Virus record (IMG/VR): IMGVR_UViG_3300036781_000714
Coordinates: 1-64,000 of that record
DNA length: 64,000 bases
DNA from: a virus
Direction: 5' to 3' (one strand)
Below the pieces are notes generated by a model. The model worked only from the letters and a program-made list of their open reading frames with translations. It did not search any database and had not been told where the DNA came from. Within the stretch, counting starts at the first letter, position 1. Each line of letters starts with the position of its first letter. Both the position numbers and the translations under genes were made by a program. Positions 6,863-63,113 of this stretch are shown here, one piece after another.

Positions 6863-7857
6863 TCCTCCTCAACGAGTAGACGGAAGCGCCGCGACGGTGC
6901 GCTGGTGTAGCGCTGAATCAGCGAGGCGTTTTCTGGTTTGGTCGCCCCGAGTGTTTCGGCGACGTTCTTCCACGAGCACCGGCCGGTCTTATCGAGCTTC
7001 CACGTGGCGACGTTCCGGATACCTGCCGCGTCGCCAATCGCCTGTTGGATGCGATGCTCGAGCTCACTCTTTTCCATGTCGAGCGCCTTGAGCTCGGCCT
7101 TCACGGTCGCGAGATGGCGCCCGGCCTCGATCAACTCGACGGTCGGCTCGATCATCTCAGCCGAGTGCGTCGCGTACTTCTGCTGCAAATACTTCTGTGC
7201 CGACTCGGTGCCGGTAATCGGGGGTTCGATCTCTGCGAGCACATTCTTATGCCAGAAGTCGTAACCGATGCCAAGCAGCGTCGCCGCGGCGGCAGCATCC
7301 CAATCGATGTGGTAGATACGGAAGTCCGCTTGGCCGATGAGGACTGCGACATCCCAGGCACGCAGTTCGGTGATGGCCATGCTCCAGAGACACTGCGCGG
7401 TCACGTCGAGCGGAACTTCTCCGGTGCCCGGAACACCGAAGTCGTCCGCGCGATAGTCAGCGAACCGCTTGATCTCCAGCCCGCGTACCGGCCCGATGAA
7501 ATGCCCTTCTCGCCCGAGCACGATGCCGTCCGGCGTGCAGGCCATGAAGTCCTCGCGACAGCGTACGTCTGACTCGGGAGTCGTCGACATTACCGCGCCC
7601 GTCACTTCGACATACTTCTGACGGATTGCGCCTTCGAGGCGAAGGCCCCACTCGGTGAACTGATTCCCCATGAAGGGCGCGACGATACCGCGCTTTTCGA
7701 GGTAGACATCGAGTGCGGACTTTCTCGGATTCAATCCCGCGACGGCGGGAATCTCAGAGGCGCCGAGGTACTTACGACGCTCCTCAAGTTTCGCGGCGTC
7801 GAAGCTCATGCCGACGACGTGATGCTGCGGCTGCGTAGACACCAGTGATTCTTCCAT
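6859..7857 (-). CDS. YqaJ-family viral recombinase (lambda-exonuclease fold)
   Basis: A 332-residue exonuclease expected to resect double-stranded ends for phage recombination. The family opening GASEIPAVAGLNP is at residues 32-44, followed by the TPDG motif with Asp110 and the GLEIK motif with Glu128 and Lys130, the expected metal-binding and catalytic residues. The C-terminal third (from about 250) is helical, with KAELKALDMEKSELEHRIQ as a short coiled coil. It is co-directional with the ATPase and possible annealing genes, making a complete phage recombination cassette. Confidence 0.92.
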   Translation of the reverse strand: MEESLVSTQPQHHVVGMSFDAAKLEERRKYLGASEIPAVAGLNPRKSALDVYLEKRGIVAPFMGNQFTEWGLRLEGAIRQKYVEVTGAVMSTTPESDVRCREDFMACTPDGIVLGREGHFIGPVRGLEIKRFADYRADDFGVPGTGEVPLDVTAQCLWSMAITELRAWDVAVLIGQADFRIYHIDWDAAAAATLLGIGYDFWHKNVLAEIEPPITGTESAQKYLQQKYATHSAEMIEPTVELIEAGRHLATVKAELKALDMEKSELEHRIQQAIGDAAGIRNVATWKLDKTGRCSWKNVAETLGATKPENASLIQRYTSAPSRRFRLLVEED

Positions 7858-7924
7858 CTATCGTTCCTCGTGTTGGTCGAAGACGCGTCGGGAAACCCTC
7901 CCCAGGGCCGGCGCGTCTTCGTTT

Positions 7925-8236
7925 TTATGCGATGCGGTTCTCGCGTCGCGGTTCGTGGTACAGGTGCTCGTGAACGACATCGCGGATCTCGTCGAGGAGT
8001 CGATCGACGTCCGCGAGCGGTCGCTTCGCCTTCTTCATGTCGACCAGTCGCCGGCCGAGCGTGCCGACTGGCTTGATCTCGTCGTAGCACACGCGCCGCA
8101 TCGTGCGCGGCACATCGGCGGCATCGTCGGCGAACATGTCTTGCAGGACGCCTTTCACCCGTGCGTCGAGCTCCAACTCAAAGCGATGTGGCGCTTTGAA
8201 GCTTTCTTCCGTGTTTCGGCGACGGGGTTGGGGCAT
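7925..8236 (-). CDS. Small phage protein, 103 aa
   Basis: No family recognised. The start at 8236 (MPQPRRRN) is preferred because residues upstream of it look like antisense of the neighbouring gene. The N-terminus is Arg-rich; the rest is helical (ELDARVKGVLQDMF, DVDRLLDEIRDVVHEHL). It is the second gene of the leftward early operon, directly after the excisionase-like gene. Confidence 0.65.
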   Translation of the reverse strand: MPQPRRRNTEESFKAPHRFELELDARVKGVLQDMFADDAADVPRTMRRVCYDEIKPVGTLGRRLVDMKKAKRPLADVDRLLDEIRDVVHEHLYHEPRRENRIA

Positions 8237-8243
8237 CGTTCGC

Positions 8244-8477
8244 TTACGCTCCCGGTGTCGCTGGCGTCGCATCGGACGGGAGCGGGTTCTTCACCAGGTA
8301 CTCGTCGATCGACGTCTGCGAGACGAACGGCCGATCCGCGAACGACTTCCCGCGCAGTTGTCCGCGCACGATCAACGACAAGACCGTGGTAATCGACTTC
8401 CGGATCTGCTTCGAAGCGTTCAGCACCGACACGTACGCGCCATCGTCGTCGGGCTCAGGCTTTCGGACTGCGTTCAT
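8244..8477 (-). CDS. Excisionase/MerR-like small DNA-binding protein
   Basis: A 77-residue protein starting MNAVRKPEPDDD. Residues 15-65 (VLNASKQIRKSITTVLSLIV, then FVSQTSIDEYL) fit the small winged-helix fold of excisionase/MerR-like proteins, in which a helix-turn-helix is followed by a short wing and a final helix. It is the first gene of the leftward operon, about 65 bases downstream of a strong promoter, with an AGAAGG ribosome site. It could be the integrase directionality factor or a Cro-like regulator; sequence alone does not decide. Confidence 0.65.
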   Translation of the reverse strand: MNAVRKPEPDDDGAYVSVLNASKQIRKSITTVLSLIVRGQLRGKSFADRPFVSQTSIDEYLVKNPLPSDATPATPGA

Positions 8478-30019: not shown

Positions 30020-32317
30020 TTAGCGTTTGTAAATGACTCGGTTCTGACGGACCTCGGCGACCATGTCGAAGCCGTCGTTGGCCATTTCTTCTTCCGCACG
30101 CCGCGCGTTCTCGGCGAACATCACGCGTTCGGCTTGCGTGCACGGCCGCGATTGATTGGCAAAGAGCTCGGCCATCCCCGCGATGAGCGGTTCGTGCATG
30201 ACGGCCGGCACGGTGATCTTGTCATCGAGCGAGGTCAGGGTCGTGAGTGCGAGATGCCGCACGGACACGTTCCGCACCGCGTCCCACTGGTCGGTGCCCG
30301 CCAGCGGCGCGCGACGCACGGGATACACGCGATTGTTCGCGATCGTGGCTTCGAGCGCCGAATGTTGCTTGGGCCAGTTCACCTGCGCGCTCTCGGCAGA
30401 GACCACGACCGATACCGGAGGGCCATCTTCATAGTTCGCGGTCAGCAGGAACAGCGTGATGATGTCGGGCGGTAGCGGGAGCCCTGCGGCGCCACCAAGC
30501 GTGCCGAACGGATCACCGAGCGTTTCGGGAAGGTCGGTGTTGACGAACGGCTGCTGGTGTTGGCTCGTCAGTGCTTCCCATCCGTCGCCCGCATCGTCGC
30601 GCAAAAAGAGCGCGCCGAGTGGGCTCACGCCGTACAACTGACCATGGGGGGAGAGATCGAACGTCGTGGTCTGTCCGACGAACGGCCGCACTTGCTCGCG
30701 GTACTTCAGGAGCTTCGCCCGCTGCCAGTTGTTCAGCCAGAGCAACGCCGAACCATCGTTCAACTGCACGTCGATGAACGACCAATGCCGAATGCGCGCC
30801 TGCTCGATGATGTCGCGCGCGGACAGCGAGGACGTCGGCGACGGCGTGGTAATGATCCGCTGATTCGTGCACGTGACGGCGCCCGGCGACCACCGATAGG
30901 GCGTGAGATCAGCGCAACAGAGACAGTCGTCATCGCCACCATCGCCCCCATCTCCTCCATCTCCGCCGTCGCCACCGTCCCCGCCATCACCCCCGTCGCC
31001 CCCATCATCGACGAACGGCGCGAAGAAGTCGTCGACGAGTTGCAACGCGCGCGTGGTGATCGCGTTGAAGAACGGCATCGCCCGCAGTCGCGACGCGATG
31101 CTGATCGAATCACTTCCGGTCGGCCCGTCAGTCTCCTCGACCGACAGCGGCACGGTCGGGAGGATGCCAAAGTCCTCATCAGCACCGATGAACAATTGCG
31201 GCGCGGCGGGGGGCGCGACGCGTGGGACGCGGACGACGGCGAGGTCGTCTTCCGCAGCAAGCGCGAGACCGACGACAGGCGGAACGAACTCCTCACTGCC
31301 CGGGACCGCGAACGTCGCACCGGCCATCGGCAGCGCGTTCGAGACGAGCGGTCGCGCAATGAACCCGGCGTCATCATCGATCGGCAGTGGTACGACGTCT
31401 GTGAGAGAACCCACATCGTCGTTCGCGCCGGGCATCCGACCGCCGAAGATTGCCGCGAGCACGGCGATCGGATTGATGACGCGTGGCGACTGCGGCGCTG
31501 GAAGTTGTACCCACTCGTTGTCGTCGACAGTGAGGGGGAGGAACGGCGGCGCTTCGTCGACCTCGTCCCACGACCCCGGATGTGGAATCGTGAACACGAA
31601 TGGAATTGGGGCCGGCAGCTTACTGCCTGTCTCGTCGTCCGCAAACGTCGGCGCTACAAATACCGGTACGTCTTCGATGCCGTCCGATGGAATGCGACGC
31701 GGTGGCACGCTCGGCGCCATGCGTTGCGGTGTTCGCAGTGGTTGTCCGGCCTCTTCGTCGACAATACTTCCGCCGCCACCACCATTCACGTACGTGAAAG
31801 CGAGGATTGCAGTACTCGCTGGTACAGTCGCGACATCGGCAAAGTTCACGGTACGATCCGGCGAGCCAGTCATCCCGTTGTTCGCGACGATCAGGTTAAT
31901 CAGGTTCCCTGCTGCCCATGTGCCCTGATTTACCAGTTCTTGGATAATCGCTGTCACGTCGAACACCACGGGTGCCGTTACGGTCAGCGGGCCATAGGTC
32001 ACCACTGCGGTAGTGGCAGGCGTCATGGCGCTTGGTTTGTTGCCGCTAGAGCCAACCGTCGCATTCGCAACCTTTTGACCATAGCACTTGAGTGCATGGT
32101 TCGTCCCAACAACGTTTGTCGGAGTGAGCGTCAGCGTCCCGCTGCTAATAGTCGCGCCTTGATTTACACTGGTGAGCGCAAATGACGTCACTCCGGTTGA
32201 CGATCTATCCCCGCCGTCTTGAAATACACCAGCCGATACCAACGACGCATTGTACACGCCTTCAGTGTCAAAACCATCGTTGGCGGTATCAGTGATTTGT
32301 TGTGAGAATGCTGTCAT
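30020..32317 (-). CDS. Large modular virion protein with GGD linker, 765 aa
   Basis: The first 190 residues are strand-rich, like a head- or fibre-binding lectin domain (TDTANDGFDTEGVYNASLV). Residues 190-430 contain a loose repeat of acidic-Pro segments with a period near 50 (for example TFADDETGSKLPAPIPF and TVDDNEWVQLPAPQSP). A run of Gly-Gly-Asp units follows, then a folded C-terminus with ARIRHWSFIDVQLNDGSAL and VPAVMHEPLIAGMAELFANQ, patterns seen in head-tail adaptor-like proteins. Likely a structural component; the exact role is not known. Confidence 0.6.
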   Translation of the reverse strand: MTAFSQQITDTANDGFDTEGVYNASLVSAGVFQDGGDRSSTGVTSFALTSVNQGATISSGTLTLTPTNVVGTNHALKCYGQKVANATVGSSGNKPSAMTPATTAVVTYGPLTVTAPVVFDVTAIIQELVNQGTWAAGNLINLIVANNGMTGSPDRTVNFADVATVPASTAILAFTYVNGGGGGSIVDEEAGQPLRTPQRMAPSVPPRRIPSDGIEDVPVFVAPTFADDETGSKLPAPIPFVFTIPHPGSWDEVDEAPPFLPLTVDDNEWVQLPAPQSPRVINPIAVLAAIFGGRMPGANDDVGSLTDVVPLPIDDDAGFIARPLVSNALPMAGATFAVPGSEEFVPPVVGLALAAEDDLAVVRVPRVAPPAAPQLFIGADEDFGILPTVPLSVEETDGPTGSDSISIASRLRAMPFFNAITTRALQLVDDFFAPFVDDGGDGGDGGDGGDGGDGGDGGDGGDDDCLCCADLTPYRWSPGAVTCTNQRIITTPSPTSSLSARDIIEQARIRHWSFIDVQLNDGSALLWLNNWQRAKLLKYREQVRPFVGQTTTFDLSPHGQLYGVSPLGALFLRDDAGDGWEALTSQHQQPFVNTDLPETLGDPFGTLGGAAGLPLPPDIITLFLLTANYEDGPPVSVVVSAESAQVNWPKQHSALEATIANNRVYPVRRAPLAGTDQWDAVRNVSVRHLALTTLTSLDDKITVPAVMHEPLIAGMAELFANQSRPCTQAERVMFAENARRAEEEMANDGFDMVAEVRQNRVIYKR
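30931..31010 (-). repeat. 9-bp repeat encoding a Gly-Gly-Asp linker
   Basis: About eight units encoding GGD in tandem within the 765-aa virion protein, followed by DDD and then CLCC. Codon usage varies between units, so the tract is conserved at the protein level rather than being a recent DNA slippage. It probably forms a flexible acidic linker. Confidence 0.8.
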
Positions 32318-52748: not shown

Positions 52749-54251
52749 TCACACCGCTGCGGCCGCGCGCGCCGCTTTCTCCGATTGCCAGTTCTCGAAA
52801 CTCGGGAAGCCGCACCGATCGGCGCTCAGCTTCTGCACCTCGGCGCTGATCGCCCGGCCGATGAACGACGAGCTCCGGTCGTACCCGTCGTAGCGCGCTT
52901 CGACCTCGCGGACGATTCCGCGCAGTTCGAGTTCGTTGGCTTCGCCCCACGCGATCGCCGCGGCGCGGCGCTCGTGGTCGTACTCGGATTCCGCCGCGCG
53001 CTCTGCGCGCTCGAGCTCCTGCTGCACCACGCTTGAGATGGCGCGTGGTGCACCGCCGCGGTTCTCGCTCGACGCCAACCCGATGCTGCCGGCGATCTGG
53101 CGTGCGCCTGCATCGAACGCTTTCTGCTCAGCGTCGCGAAACGCGTCGAAGATCGGCTCGCGGAAATACCCGATGGCTTTCATCGGCGCCGACAACTTCG
53201 AGGCTTTGCAGACACTCACGATCGTGCGTCGCGCGAGATCGATCGGGACACCCGCGGTGATCAATTCGCTCGCCAGTGCGGACGAGGCGCCGTAGTTGAT
53301 CGGGTGGATCTGCTCGCCCCATTTGTCTTCGATGCCCATGTTCGCGGCGCTGGTGATGGCGAGCGCGAATTGGCGGATTTCCTCAGCGCGTTTTTCGTCC
53401 GGCTTTTCGTCAGCAACAGCAGCGGCTTTTTCGATCAGCGGACCTACAGAGATGCTTGCTGTTGCTGTATGAACTTTATCTTGAGAAATACTAGTACTAC
53501 TGTCTTTCATGTCTTTAGGACGCTGCAATGTCTCATCGAATAAAGACTTACGCTCGATATAGTGGCCCGGTGTCGGGGCACTAAGTGGCCCGGTGTCGGG
53601 GCACTCACTTTTTTCGGCCTTCTCAGGAGTGCCCTGGTATTGGGGCACTGGCAGTGCCCTGGTATTGGGGCACTGATCTTCGGCGTCGTCGTCAAACTCT
53701 TCTATAGAAGTAGTGCCCTGATGTTGGGGCACTTCGTCGATCTCGTATTCGTCCTCCTCGTCCGCCATTTCTTCGGCGTATTGCCGCGCTTGCGCTGCGC
53801 GTTTGCGACGCTGCTCTTCCATATGCTCGGCCTTCGCCACCTTGAACGCCGTGTCGTCGTGCTCTGGTCGATCGCTGAAATACGCGGACAATCGACCAGT
53901 GGGCATGCTGTATTTGCCCCACTGCGTGTAGTCCTTTTGCATGCCCCACAGTGGGCGCTTCACGCCGCGAGAACGACCAAACGCGAAGATCACTCCCTCC
54001 TTCAGCAGGAGGTCGAGATCGTCGCGTGCAGCGCCCCCTGAACGCCGCGCATCGGGACCAGGACCGAGTCCAGAGATCTCGAGAAGCTGGGGCGCCGACA
54101 TGCGCACGCTGCGGCGATTCCACCCATAGGTTAGCCGCATGAGCGTCCACAGAATTCGATCCTGACGGGCACTGAATCCCGCACCGATCATCGCTTCGGC
54201 GAGTCGGTTTGCGACCTTCATATGACCCTTCGCAAGCTGAACGTCTTCCAC
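52749..54251 (-). CDS. Lambda-O-like replication initiator
   Basis: A 500-residue protein (GTG start; MKVANRL at 54221 is an alternative). Residues 9-85 form the winged-helix origin-binding domain of phage O proteins: GHMKVANRLAEAMIGAGFSA, RQDRILWTLMRLTYGWNRRS, then the wing DDLDLLLKEGVIFAFG. A charged middle part (about 140-260) is encoded by the iteron DNA. The C-terminal half is helical and would recruit a helicase or loader. It presumably binds the five iterons within its own gene. Confidence 0.82.
   Translation of the reverse strand: MEDVQLAKGHMKVANRLAEAMIGAGFSARQDRILWTLMRLTYGWNRRSVRMSAPQLLEISGLGPGPDARRSGGAARDDLDLLLKEGVIFAFGRSRGVKRPLWGMQKDYTQWGKYSMPTGRLSAYFSDRPEHDDTAFKVAKAEHMEEQRRKRAAQARQYAEEMADEEDEYEIDEVPQHQGTTSIEEFDDDAEDQCPNTRALPVPQYQGTPEKAEKSECPDTGPLSAPTPGHYIERKSLFDETLQRPKDMKDSSTSISQDKVHTATASISVGPLIEKAAAVADEKPDEKRAEEIRQFALAITSAANMGIEDKWGEQIHPINYGASSALASELITAGVPIDLARRTIVSVCKASKLSAPMKAIGYFREPIFDAFRDAEQKAFDAGARQIAGSIGLASSENRGGAPRAISSVVQQELERAERAAESEYDHERRAAAIAWGEANELELRGIVREVEARYDGYDRSSSFIGRAISAEVQKLSADRCGFPSFENWQSEKAARAAAAV
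53460..53733. other. Putative phage replication origin: five palindromic iterons plus AT-rich side
   Basis: Five 22-bp units, each with arms AGTG(C/G)CC and GGGGCACT-type ends, lie at 53561-53582, 53584-53605, 53628-53649, 53653-53674 and 53712-53733. Copies 1 and 2 are identical, as are copies 3 and 4. On the 3' side of the gene (53460-53560) the DNA is clearly AT-richer than its surroundings and fits an unwinding region. The order initiator N-domain codons, iterons, AT-rich region is that of the lambda origin in gene O. Confidence 0.82.
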
Positions 54252-60410: not shown

Positions 60411-61319
60411 TCATTTCACCTTCAGCCGCTTGGCGATTGAGGTGTAGTTCTCGCTGATCGCGGTGAGTTCAGCGCGCGCCTTTCGCTCGCGTTCTACATC
60501 GGACGCCCACTGCTCATCGTCGAGGAGCGACGTGATTTCGGAACGCACGAGTTCAGCGAGCACCGAGGGTTCGAGTGCGTCGAGTTCCCACGATTTGTTG
60601 CCGAAGAGCGTGCGATAACCTTGGAATCGCGAGTCGGTTTCCTTCGCGGGGTTCGGCGGCGGCCGATACTGACGCACTTGCGGCATATTCAACGCGAGGC
60701 GGCGCACGTCGACACCAACTGCGCCGAATAGCGAGAGGCGATCTTCGATGTCGCGTGTCATGTCGATGCCACTGGGGTCATGGTCGCCGAAGTGCAGCAC
60801 CACGAGCTCCTTGTCCGCGTCGCTCTTCGCGGCGAGGCGCTGAGCGGCAGACCATACCTCAGAGTCCGACGTGTAACCGCGACACGAGAAGAACGGCACG
60901 CGAAGCGATTGCGCGACACGCTCGAAGACACCCATCAACGCGTCCTTCTCGAACCACACCTCGACGTAGTACGGCTGTTGCTCCCACAGATCGAGGCGGA
61001 AGACCTCGGAGTCTTCTTTGATGATCGCGGCAGGCTCTTCCCACGAACCGAGCGATTTGAGATTGCGCGTGCGATCGACGATCGCGTCCCAGTCGATCAG
61101 GCCTGCGCGGCGCGCTTCCGAGATGAGATTCCCGAGGCGCTTATACTCGCTCTGTTTGTTTGGGATGAGATCGCGGCTCACGAACTGGTAATACAACTGA
61201 CGCAACGTCAGGTCGTAGCCTTCGGCCCGATACGCCTCGATGATCTCGTTCGCCTGCTCGATCATCTTGAGCCGCGCCGGACCGAACTTCCGGTCTTCGT
61301 AGCAAATGAAGGGGCTCAT
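60411..61319 (-). CDS. Stand-alone topoisomerase VI A/Spo11-like protein (mini-A)
   Basis: A 302-residue protein with both functional parts of the A subunit. The winged-helix (5Y-CAP) region has LRQLYYQFVSRDLI with the expected catalytic Tyr at 43 or 44, followed by YKRLGNLISEARRAGLIDWD. The TOPRIM domain has VWFEKDALMG (Glu124) and HFGDHDPSGID (Asp179 and Asp181). No B-subunit ATPase gene is nearby. Stand-alone A-like proteins of this kind (mini-A) occur on plasmids and phages; their in vivo role is open. Confidence 0.82.
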   Translation of the reverse strand: MSPFICYEDRKFGPARLKMIEQANEIIEAYRAEGYDLTLRQLYYQFVSRDLIPNKQSEYKRLGNLISEARRAGLIDWDAIVDRTRNLKSLGSWEEPAAIIKEDSEVFRLDLWEQQPYYVEVWFEKDALMGVFERVAQSLRVPFFSCRGYTSDSEVWSAAQRLAAKSDADKELVVLHFGDHDPSGIDMTRDIEDRLSLFGAVGVDVRRLALNMPQVRQYRPPPNPAKETDSRFQGYRTLFGNKSWELDALEPSVLAELVRSEITSLLDDEQWASDVERERKARAELTAISENYTSIAKRLKVK

Positions 61320-61371: not shown

Positions 61372-62151
61372 TCATGACGCGGCCTCGGCGAACTCAGGGT
61401 ACATCGCGCGCTTCACCGCGTTGGCGATCGCGCGGCCCATCGGGAGCGGGACCCCGTTGCCGATCATTTTGCGAATAGCCGTGTCGGTAAACGGAGATTC
61501 CGCGAAAAGGTTTGGTGGTGCTCCTTGCCGACGGAGCATCTCAGCGATTGAAAGTCGCGGGCCGTTGCCGCTTGTGACGCGATTCGCCGGAACACCCGGC
61601 TTGGCCTTTCGCTTACCACTGCCGCCGATAGCAACCGGTTGAATGCGCGCGTCAGAGCAGACCGCGGGATACGATTGCTCGCCGTGGAGTGCACGCTGCT
61701 CAATGGTGAACGATGCAGGCGCGATGCCCGTGTGGAAATTATGAACGCCAAACGAGAAGCGGCGGAGACGCGACGTTTCCCCACCAACCCAATCATCGCG
61801 CACTAACTGCGAGCGGACGCGAAAATGAGGCGTATTGGGCTCCGGCGCCGCCTCAACGTTCTCCATCACGAACCAATGCGGCCGGGCATCGTTCACGACC
61901 CGCTCGAACTCGGGGATCATGTTGCCGTGCTTTTCGCCGCAGCGTGGGTTCAGGCGCTTGAACGCCGAGAAGAGCTGGCAGGGTGGCCCGCCGATGATTC
62001 CATCGAAGCGATCAGCAGTCGGATGAAACGCGCGCACGTCGCCGCCCCACAGCAGATCGGGTCCGCGCACGACGCAGAACCCCGCTTCCTCGAACGCCAT
62101 GTCGAGGAGCCCGATCCCAGGAAACAACGAAAGCACTAACGGCTGTGTCAT
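61372..62151 (-). CDS. C5-cytosine DNA methyltransferase
   Basis: A 259-residue enzyme: motif I LFPGIGLLD at 9-17, motif IV GGPPCQ at 54-59 with catalytic Cys58, motif VI ENV at 97-99, motif VIII-like SRLRRFSFG near 141 and motif X GNGVPLPMGRAIANAV near 228-243. It methylates cytosine at C5 using SAM; the target is not predictable here. No restriction enzyme partner is adjacent. It may protect phage DNA. Short target-recognition region. ATGA-coupled to the Cys-Ser-X repeat gene. Confidence 0.92.
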   Translation of the reverse strand: MTQPLVLSLFPGIGLLDMAFEEAGFCVVRGPDLLWGGDVRAFHPTADRFDGIIGGPPCQLFSAFKRLNPRCGEKHGNMIPEFERVVNDARPHWFVMENVEAAPEPNTPHFRVRSQLVRDDWVGGETSRLRRFSFGVHNFHTGIAPASFTIEQRALHGEQSYPAVCSDARIQPVAIGGSGKRKAKPGVPANRVTSGNGPRLSIAEMLRRQGAPPNLFAESPFTDTAIRKMIGNGVPLPMGRAIANAVKRAMYPEFAEAAS

Positions 62152-63113
62152 CGGCTTCCTTCGCTCTCCTGCGGGGAAAGGGTGGCAACATTGGCAGTAG
62201 CAGCCAACGCCGCTTCCTCCGCAGCACACCGACGCATGTCCGCCATCGCGACGTCGTTCGACTCGTAGAAGCGCGGCGGGGACACGCGGATCGGGCTCGA
62301 GGCTTTGTAGATCAACTGCGCCGCGAGCTGCGTGTCGTGATACGCCTCTAGTGCGCGCCCGGCATCGCCCGCGAGCGTCACGACCCATCCACCGCGACAG
62401 TGCGTCGTGTCGCACGTATGCCAGGTGCTCATGTCGAGCGCGTTCGGTGCGGAGACAGCCGCGAGCACTTGCTGATGGATGTTCGGGATCTTCGGCACGT
62501 CCGACGACGGCACAACGTCACCGCGCTTGCCACTGGCGCCGATGTCGCCCGAGCAATCCGAGCAATCCGAGCAATCCGAGCAACCCGAGCAATCCGAGCA
62601 ACCCGAGCAATCCGAGCAATCCGAGCAACCCGAGCAACCCGAGCAATCCGAGCAACCCGAGCAATCCGAGCAACCCGAGCAACGCGAGCAACGCGAGCAA
62701 CCCGAGCAATCCGAGCAATCCGAGCAACCCGAGCAACGCGAGCAACGCGAGCAACCCGAGCAATCCGAGCAATCCGAGCAACCCGAGCAACCCGAGCAAT
62801 CCGAGCAACCCGAGCAATCCGAGCAACCCGAGCAACGCGAGCAACGCGAGCAACGCGAGCAATCCGAGCAATCCGAGCAACGCGAGCAACCCGAGCAATC
62901 CGAGCAACCCGAGCAACGCGAGCAACGCGAGCAACCCGAGCAATCCGAGCAACCCGAGCAACCCGAGCAATCCGAGCAACCCCAACATCCTTGATTGCCG
63001 CGTTCTTCATCCCACGTCGGATTGGTGTCGGCGAACGCTTGCGACACGCCGTTGATGGACGGATCTGGGCGACGGGCAAAGGCGGCATAGGACGCGAAGA
63101 TTTCAGTTCTCAT
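62148..63113 (-). CDS. Cys-Ser-X triplet repeat protein with C-terminal domain
   Basis: A 321-residue protein in three parts. Residues 1-45: charged start (AFARRPDPSINGVSQAFADT, PTWDEERGNQGCWG). Residues 46-189: 48 perfect Cys-Ser-X triplets, where X is only Asp (19), Gly (19) or Arg (10). Residues 190-321: a folded domain with DMSTWHTCDTTHCRGGWVVT and ASSPIRVSPPRFYESNDVAM. All six frames of the repeat are open, but only this frame leads into a domain and an ATGA junction with the methyltransferase. Cys every third residue suggests a metal-rich or disulphide-linked rod. Function unknown. Confidence 0.8.
   Translation of the reverse strand: MRTEIFASYAAFARRPDPSINGVSQAFADTNPTWDEERGNQGCWGCSDCSGCSGCSDCSGCSRCSRCSGCSDCSGCSRCSDCSDCSRCSRCSRCSGCSDCSGCSDCSGCSGCSDCSDCSGCSRCSRCSGCSDCSDCSGCSRCSRCSGCSDCSGCSDCSGCSGCSDCSDCSGCSDCSGCSDCSDCSDCSGDIGASGKRGDVVPSSDVPKIPNIHQQVLAAVSAPNALDMSTWHTCDTTHCRGGWVVTLAGDAGRALEAYHDTQLAAQLIYKASSPIRVSPPRFYESNDVAMADMRRCAAEEAALAATANVATLSPQESEGSR
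62547..62978 (-). repeat. 48 tandem 9-bp units encoding Cys-Ser-X
   Basis: Plus-strand units are GAGCAATCC, GAGCAACCC and GAGCAACGC variants. Cys and Ser codons are constant (TGC TCG) and only the third codon changes (GAT, GGT, CGT). The constant codons point to DNA-level expansion by slippage, and the strict choice among three residues to selection. The tract looks prone to length changes. Confidence 0.95.

What the first reader, a model, noticed from the sequence alone, without database searches (positions are those of the whole stretch)
62547..62978. 48 uninterrupted Cys-Ser-X triplets: an undescribed repeat protein
Cys at every third position for 144 residues, with X limited to Asp, Gly or Arg, is extraordinary. 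A three-residue period could put all Cys on one face of an extended helix, giving a metal or redox rod, or a multiply disulphide-bonded spacer. The DNA is highly repetitive and probably changes length, so the protein may vary between lysogens. I recall similar Cys-Ser repeats in other phages, but no function.
Basis: partly seen in the sequence, partly recalled or inferred. Interest (0 to 1): 0.85.

Follow-up and report, generated by a model that had tools for sequence, protein, structure and literature searches.

The report
Cysteine-core tripeptide-repeat rod of phages
Many phages carry a protein built around a long, perfectly regular Cys-Ser-X repeat, which is probably a very thin rod with a cysteine core, in which one exposed residue per repeat is kept varied while the silent DNA positions stay frozen; no described repeat family covers it.

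Summary
In detail: 48 uninterrupted Cys-Ser-X triplets (62547-62978, minus strand; X = 19 Gly, 19 Asp, 10 Arg) lie in a 321-residue gene of a temperate phage. It is not a curiosity of this window: I collected 91 different arrays from phages and prophages of several bacterial phyla. Cys fills 2,626 of 2,632 triplets; Ser is sometimes replaced (Tyr, Arg, Thr, Phe, Trp), and X is Asp, Gly, Arg, Tyr, Asn, Ser or His. The array is a movable middle module between an N-terminal cap and one of at least four C-terminal domains. Two of those domains also follow pentapeptide (beta-helix) or hexapeptide-type (left-handed beta-helix) repeats, one also leucine-rich-like or HEAT repeats. The best reading is a new solenoid type: three residues per side, Cys inward, Ser on the side, X at the corner, as in the 12-residue coil of Tenebrio antifreeze protein. 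AlphaFold gives only weak, low-confidence support. Within each array silent sites are almost invariant while X is 13-fold more diverse, so X diversity is maintained. Metal or disulphide chemistry is plausible but untested, and the task of the protein is unknown. PHROGs list it as unknown; Pfam and NCBIfam have no model.

The parts
62148..63113 (-). Whole gene: N-cap, Cys-Ser-X array, linker, C-terminal domain (321 aa + stop)
   Evidence: ORF list and sequence; homologues with the same three-part layout
62988..63113 (-). N-terminal cap, type A (residues 1-42, MRTEIFASYAAFARRPDPSINGVSQAFADTNPTWDEERGNQG)
   Evidence: invariant T3 I5 F12 R15 N21 G22 N40 in 31 homologues; AlphaFold pLDDT about 84 over residues 1-30
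62979..62987 (-). First, capping Cys-Trp-Gly triplet (most type A homologues read Cys-Trp-Asn here)
62547..62978 (-). 48 Cys-Ser-X triplets (residues 46-189), X = Asp, Gly, Arg
   Evidence: PHROG 15341 match
62499..62546 (-). Short linker (residues 190-205)
   Evidence: low AlphaFold confidence; not conserved in length or sequence
62208..62498 (-). C-terminal domain CTD1 (residues 206-302), predicted all-helical
   Evidence: PHROG 31265; AlphaFold pLDDT mostly above 90; 207 distinct relatives
62385..62423 (-). CTD1 signature WHTCDTTHCRGGW (residues 231-243) with His, Cys, His-Cys; possible metal site
   Evidence: invariant or nearly invariant columns; the first His is kept in all 207 CTD1 sequences (the other letters were part of the search pattern, so their conservation there is not a test)
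61372..62151 (-). Neighbour gene: C5 cytosine DNA methylase, whose ATG overlaps the stop of the array gene (ATGA)
   Evidence: PF00145, E 8e-21; sequence

Best explanation
The array is a tripeptide-repeat solenoid: a very thin parallel beta-helix in which each triplet forms one side of a coil. Cys (position 1) points into the core, Ser (position 2) lies on the side, and X (position 3, mostly Asp, Gly, Arg) turns the corner. Four triplets (12 residues) per coil, as in Tenebrio antifreeze protein, is the likeliest geometry, which would make the window's array a rod of about 12 coils with four inward Cys per coil, held by disulphides or metal. The N-cap starts the rod; the helical C-terminal domain, or one of at least three alternatives in other phages, is the effector or docking part. 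The rod is one of several interchangeable solenoid modules in a class of early phage proteins. Its length and its X residues turn over fast, and X diversity is kept by selection (or by biased mutation) on an exposed surface. Shown: the sequence pattern, the modular exchange, the silent-versus-replacement contrast. Inferred: the fold, the coil size, the Cys chemistry and the role as a variable rod. Not known: the target and biological task of the protein.
For: (1) Modular exchange: of 207 distinct CTD1 domains, 107 follow Cys-Ser-X arrays, 78 follow pentapeptide repeats, and others follow hexapeptide (PF00132), HEAT (PF02985) or leucine-rich-like repeats. A second C-terminal domain (CTD3) follows Cys-Ser-X in L358 but pentapeptide or hexapeptide-type repeats in L362, L364, L359, L360, L366, L368. 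(2) Residue grammar over 87 arrays: position 1 Cys 2626/2632; position 2 Ser, then Tyr, Arg, Thr, Trp, Phe, Ile; position 3 Asp, Gly, Arg, Tyr, Asn, Ser, His with almost no Ala, Val, Ile, Leu, Pro, Thr. (3) Sequence search of the PDB with the window protein returns one family, Tenebrio antifreeze protein 1EZG (E 0.0017, composition-biased), whose inward residues are positions 2, 5, 8, 11 of a 12-residue coil (PMC8038014). Its triplets fit the position-2/position-3 preferences of the phage arrays better than shuffles (P 0.004). (4) AlphaFold on 36 in-register arrays gives, in its best model, a bridge at nearly every Ser; its weak Foldseek matches are largely beta-helices and solenoids, including 1L1I, MfpA and QnrB1. 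(5) Pentapeptide arrays carrying the same CTD1 vary in the same way: core and silent positions frozen, exposed and corner positions varied, with the same Gly/Asp/Arg/Asn/Ser corner alphabet.
Against: AlphaFold confidence for the array is low: pLDDT 30-48 with no secondary structure in the full protein; the array-only models reach pLDDT 50 at best and 30-39 in the other four, and no Foldseek hit is significant. No four-triplet periodicity is seen in X or position 2, and triplet number is not significantly biased to multiples of four. Cys-Ser-X and pentapeptide forms are mostly separate clades of the CTD1 tree (as few as 2 changes between them), so the number of independent swaps is small. Some of the exchanged repeats (HEAT, L351) are alpha-solenoids, so exchange argues for an elongated repeat rod more than for a beta-helix in particular. 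The proteins look cytoplasmic, where disulphides rarely form.
Confidence: 0.55

Rival explanations
1. The array is a flexible metallothionein-like or phytochelatin-like polymer. Its CxxC units bind soft metals (zinc, copper, iron or iron-sulphur clusters) in the cell, and the X residues only keep the chain soluble.
For: One residue in three is Cys and almost never replaced, while solenoid cores usually tolerate other small residues. AlphaFold predicts no structure for the array in the full protein. Ser, Gly and Asp favour disorder. No signal peptide is apparent, so the thiols would be reduced and free to bind metal.
Against: The same C-terminal domains use pentapeptide, hexapeptide and HEAT repeats, which are not known to bind metal (own knowledge), so metal binding is not the shared task. 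Positions 2 and 3 are not free: they have distinct alphabets. No metal-handling gene was seen among the recurrent neighbours.
Confidence: 0.22
2. A negatively charged solenoid that mimics DNA, like MfpA or Qnr on gyrase, used against gyrase, restriction or other DNA-binding host proteins.
For: Pentapeptide-repeat proteins, the fold class of MfpA and Qnr (PMC8145042), share the C-terminal domain. The genes lie among early DNA genes such as YqaJ exonuclease, methylases, helicases and recombination proteins, and 76% of arrays are net negative.
Against: Net charge per triplet ranges from -0.82 to +0.37 and about a quarter of arrays are neutral or positive. There is no match to known families of gyrase inhibitors or anti-phage systems.
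Confidence: 0.12
3. The repeat matters as DNA, for instance as an iteron array or a recombination substrate, and the protein is incidental.
For: A 9-bp tandem array in an early gene; all six frames are open; arrays differ in length between near-identical phages.
Against: Different phages encode the same protein pattern with different Ser codons (TCG, TCC, TCT, TCA, AGC, AGT), Cys codons and third bases, 19 combinations in 91 arrays, and the frame leads into a conserved domain. This phage has a separate set of origin-like iterons in its replication gene.
Confidence: 0.03
4. Assembly or frame artefact: the array is a repeat of another frame or a misassembled low-complexity stretch.
For: Tandem repeats are hard for short reads; one homologue (L030) has broken frames, and pairs with identical flanks may be re-assemblies of one sample.
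Against: 82 complete arrays on separate contigs, including isolate genomes (Kaistia, Dyadobacter, Rhizorhapis, Phyllobacterium) and, in the phage records, Flavobacterium phage FL-1, keep the Cys frame with an N-cap.
Confidence: 0.02

Closest known systems
Tenebrio molitor antifreeze protein (TmAFP, PDB 1EZG and 1L1I)
   Same: Period-3 inward residues (C2, S5, C8, A11 of a 12-residue coil, PMC8038014), Cys-rich core, similar preferences at the two outward positions
   Different: Insect, secreted and disulphide-bonded; only half of the inward residues are Cys; ice-binding TCT face absent here; no homology claimed, since the sequence match is composition-driven
Pentapeptide repeat proteins (PF00805; MfpA, Qnr)
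   Same: Phage members share the C-terminal domain CTD1 and the same within-array variation pattern and corner alphabet
   Different: Three instead of five residues per repeat, Cys instead of Leu and Ala in the presumed core; no Pfam pentapeptide match
PHROG 31265 and PHROG 15341 (unknown function)
   Same: The window protein matches both: C-terminal domain and array respectively
   Different: No function, fold or repeat description is attached to them
Metallothioneins and phytochelatins
   Same: About one third Cys, CxxC spacing
   Different: Strict period of three over up to 51 triplets, larger size, fixed caps and C-terminal domain; no metal data
Snow flea or springtail Gly-X-X antifreeze proteins
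   Same: Tripeptide repeat
   Different: The repeat residue there is Gly, needed for close packing of polyproline-II helices (own knowledge); here it is Cys

Membership tests
PHROG 31265 (CTD1 proteins) | HMM match over the C-terminal domain | tested here: met
   E 5.1e-33
PHROG 31265 (CTD1 proteins) | W-H-x-C-x-x-x-H-C-R-x-G-W signature | tested here: met
   window residues 231-243; invariant or nearly so
Tenebrio-type antifreeze beta-helix | inward-type residue at every third position, Cys-rich | tested here: met
   (sequence pattern only)
Tenebrio-type antifreeze beta-helix | 12-residue TCTxSxNCxxAx consensus (TCT ice-binding face) | tested here: not met
   Cys-Ser-X throughout, no TCT ranks; no four-triplet periodicity
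Tenebrio-type antifreeze beta-helix | beta-helix fold | tested here: inconclusive
   low-confidence AlphaFold models
Tenebrio-type antifreeze beta-helix | intra-coil disulphides | not testable with these tools
   needs protein
Pentapeptide repeat proteins | match to PF00805 or A(N/D)LXX repeats | tested here: not met
   no Pfam match, period 3 not 5
Metallothionein | bound d10 metal through Cys clusters | not testable with these tools
   needs protein and ICP-MS
Metallothionein | match to a metallothionein family model | tested here: not met
   no match in Pfam or NCBIfam
Diversity-generating retroelement target protein | reverse transcriptase in the same genome | tested here: not met
   no PF00078 match in the 65-kb record (the record may be incomplete)

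The most novel reading that the evidence does not exclude
The array is a genetically encoded metal or iron-sulphur ladder: a solenoid with four inward Cys per coil binding one metal centre per coil, so that a 48-triplet array carries about 12 stacked centres, and its surface is diversified by a mechanism that changes only the two variable bases of the X codon. The evidence does not exclude either part.
Probability: 0.1. Interest if true: 0.92.

Novelty: new variant of a known kind. Interest (0 to 1): 0.68.

Why it matters
It adds a probable new solenoid building block (three residues per side, all-Cys core) that is common in phages yet unnamed. It shows a class of phage proteins in which unrelated repeat rods are swapped in front of the same small domains. 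It also gives an unusually clean natural case in which replacement sites are diverse and silent sites are frozen within one array, which makes selection for surface diversity directly testable. If the Cys core binds metal in rows, it would also be a natural scaffold of interest to bioinorganic chemistry.

Tried and rejected
Pfam, NCBIfam and PADLOC matches for the protein: none. PDB profile search with CTD1: nothing credible. Foldseek of the full model: no PDB hit and only two meaningless BFVD hits. Test for whole coils (triplet number modulo 4 = 0, 1, 2, 3: 25, 26, 17, 14) and for a four-triplet period in X, position 2 or charge: no clear signal. Conserved partner gene, such as a modifying enzyme for a peptide product: none found; neighbours are scattered early DNA genes. 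Reverse transcriptase for targeted diversification: absent from the record. Literature searches for Cys-Ser or CXX repeats, tripeptide solenoids and phage solenoid proteins: nothing describing this class in the open library; subscription papers were not searchable. Many hits of the DNA-pattern scan are 'CSGCSGCSG' frames with no N-cap and no C-terminal domain, probably antisense to other repeat genes such as collagen-like ones; they were set aside.

Full report
1. What is in the window. The minus-strand ORF 62148-63113 encodes 321 residues: an N-terminal segment of 42 residues, one Cys-Trp-Gly triplet, 48 uninterrupted Cys-Ser-X triplets (62547-62978), a 16-residue linker, a conserved domain of about 97 residues and a short tail. 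X is Gly 19, Asp 19, Arg 10. The 9-bp unit is TGC TCG (GGT/GAT/CGT). Because the unit has no stop in any frame, long ORFs exist in all six frames, so openness proves nothing. The Cys frame is supported by the domain that follows it (PHROG 31265, E 5e-33) and by PHROG 15341 over the array. The gene overlaps by ATGA the next gene, a C5 cytosine methylase (PF00145). The 65-kb virus record carries a serine integrase, a YqaJ exonuclease, a P22-like portal and a lambda-O-type replication protein, so it is probably a temperate tailed phage.

2. It is a widespread class. Searches with the C-terminal domain (CTD1) in viral contigs, bacterial genomes, phage records and plasmids gave over 100 distinct CTD1 proteins with a Cys-Ser-X-type array. 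The genome records that hold copies include Bacteroidota, several Pseudomonadota, Acidobacteriota and candidate phyla (record titles). The only phage record with one in the phage collection is Flavobacterium phage FL-1. Complete arrays have a median of 29 triplets, range 6-51. Three N-caps occur: type A (as here), type B (TWLxDxxGNxCSVEYFGSxEAAQKALDSL) and type C (GNIGVSYVSQ).

3. The protein pattern. Over 87 arrays Cys fills position 1 in 2,626 of 2,632 triplets; the pattern used to find arrays favours Cys, but single interruptions were allowed. Position 2 is Ser in 82%, otherwise Tyr, Arg, Thr, Trp, Phe, Ile and others. Position 3 is Asp 38%, Gly 27%, Arg 19%, then Tyr, Asn, Ser, His, with Ala, Pro and Thr absent or nearly so. 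This is the profile expected of core, side and corner positions; Gly, Asn and Asp are the classical turn formers (own knowledge).

4. Modular exchange. I classified what precedes CTD1. Of 207 distinct CTD1 domains 107 follow Cys-Ser-X arrays and 78 follow pentapeptide repeats; a few follow hexapeptide repeats (L334, L336; PF00132), HEAT repeats (L351; PF02985), another alpha-type repeat (L331, L353) and leucine-rich-like repeats (L059, L333). The reverse also holds: Cys-Ser-X arrays precede other C-terminal domains, CTD2 in L190, L234 and L357, CTD3 in L209/L358, CTD4 in L169. CTD3 in turn follows pentapeptide and hexapeptide-type repeats in other phages. So the array occupies the slot that solenoids occupy. 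A tree of CTD1 shows that the Cys-Ser-X and pentapeptide forms are largely separate clades, with as few as 2 changes between them and 8 over all repeat types; the tree has few columns and many open forks. Exchange is real but not frequent.

5. Fold. AlphaFold on the whole protein with 31 rows gives a confident helical CTD1 (pLDDT mostly above 90), a fair N-cap and an unstructured array (pLDDT 30-48). With 36 arrays aligned in register the best of five models (pLDDT 50) shows a bridge at nearly every Ser, and its weak Foldseek matches are largely beta-helices and solenoids, among them TmAFP, MfpA and QnrB1; none is significant. Sequence search of the PDB with the window protein returns only TmAFP (E 0.0017, high composition bias). 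In that family the inward residues of a 12-residue coil are positions 2, 5, 8 and 11 (PMC8038014), exactly every third. Split in its own register, TmAFP follows the position-2 and position-3 preferences of the phage arrays better than shuffled letters (P 0.004). I therefore favour a 12-residue coil of four triplets, but no periodicity test supports the number four, and a different number of sides is possible.

6. Evolution of the array. In 91 arrays the median within-array entropy is zero at every silent site and about 0.97 bit at the first two bases of the X codon. Pairwise diversity at X exceeds silent diversity in 91 of 91 arrays, 13.5-fold on pooled means; 48 arrays have no silent diversity at all. 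Yet the frozen silent state differs between arrays, in 19 combinations of Ser codon, Cys codon and third base. Units are thus homogenised fast, but X diversity persists. Selection for DNA heterogeneity alone would also have used silent sites, so the force most likely acts on the protein surface; biased mutation of these two bases is the alternative. Pentapeptide arrays with the same CTD1 show the same contrast. Phages with identical CTD1 DNA have different arrays (28 and 25, 42 and 37, 30 and 50 triplets), with the caution that these are metagenome assemblies and some pairs may come from one sample.

7. Function. The genes lie near early DNA genes (YqaJ exonucleases, methylases, helicases, recombination proteins) without a constant partner. 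This argues for a non-structural role early in infection or in lysogeny. The Cys core could be reduced, disulphide-bonded or metal-loaded. The class name I propose is tripeptide-repeat (CSX) solenoid.

8. Verdict. Observation confirmed. Interpretation partly supported. New repeat variant within a known kind of modular solenoid proteins, unnamed in the family libraries searched and not found in the open literature searched.

Noticed in passing
window 53561-53740 (minus strand), inside the gene 52749-54251: Five or so copies of a palindromic iteron-like repeat (about AGTGCCCCRAYACCRGGSCACT) inside a gene for a lambda-O-type replication protein (PF04492), probably the replication origin within the initiator gene, as in phage lambda.
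   Followed up: partly
L038 (Flavobacterium phage FL-1, KY421186.2) 7497-8340: GenBank annotates the array of FL-1 in another frame (Ala-Pro-Val/Ile repeat, CDS 7609-7953); the Cys frame with N-cap begins at 7497. The C-terminal domain of the record is interrupted by a frameshift.
   Followed up: partly
L331 892-2076 and L353 1225-2076: CTD1 behind near-perfect STVARVLSIADD or STLDRIAAVASD repeats with two-state variation at a few positions (Ala/Asp, Asp-Asp/Ser-Ser), the same style of restricted variation as in the Cys-Ser-X arrays.
   Followed up: no
L361 and L363: A further repeat, GGTIxGGTIx, precedes CTD3.
   Followed up: no
L030 3458-4006: A homologue whose array switches frame several times (Cys-Ser-X to Ala-Pro-Thr), either decayed or misassembled.
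   Followed up: no
window 30931-31006: Gly-Gly-Asp repeat (9-bp period) in the 765-residue protein 30020-32317, which has no Pfam match.
   Followed up: no
window 60411-61319: 302-residue neighbour without Pfam match that holds a GDHDPSGIDM stretch resembling a Toprim-type acidic motif.
   Followed up: no
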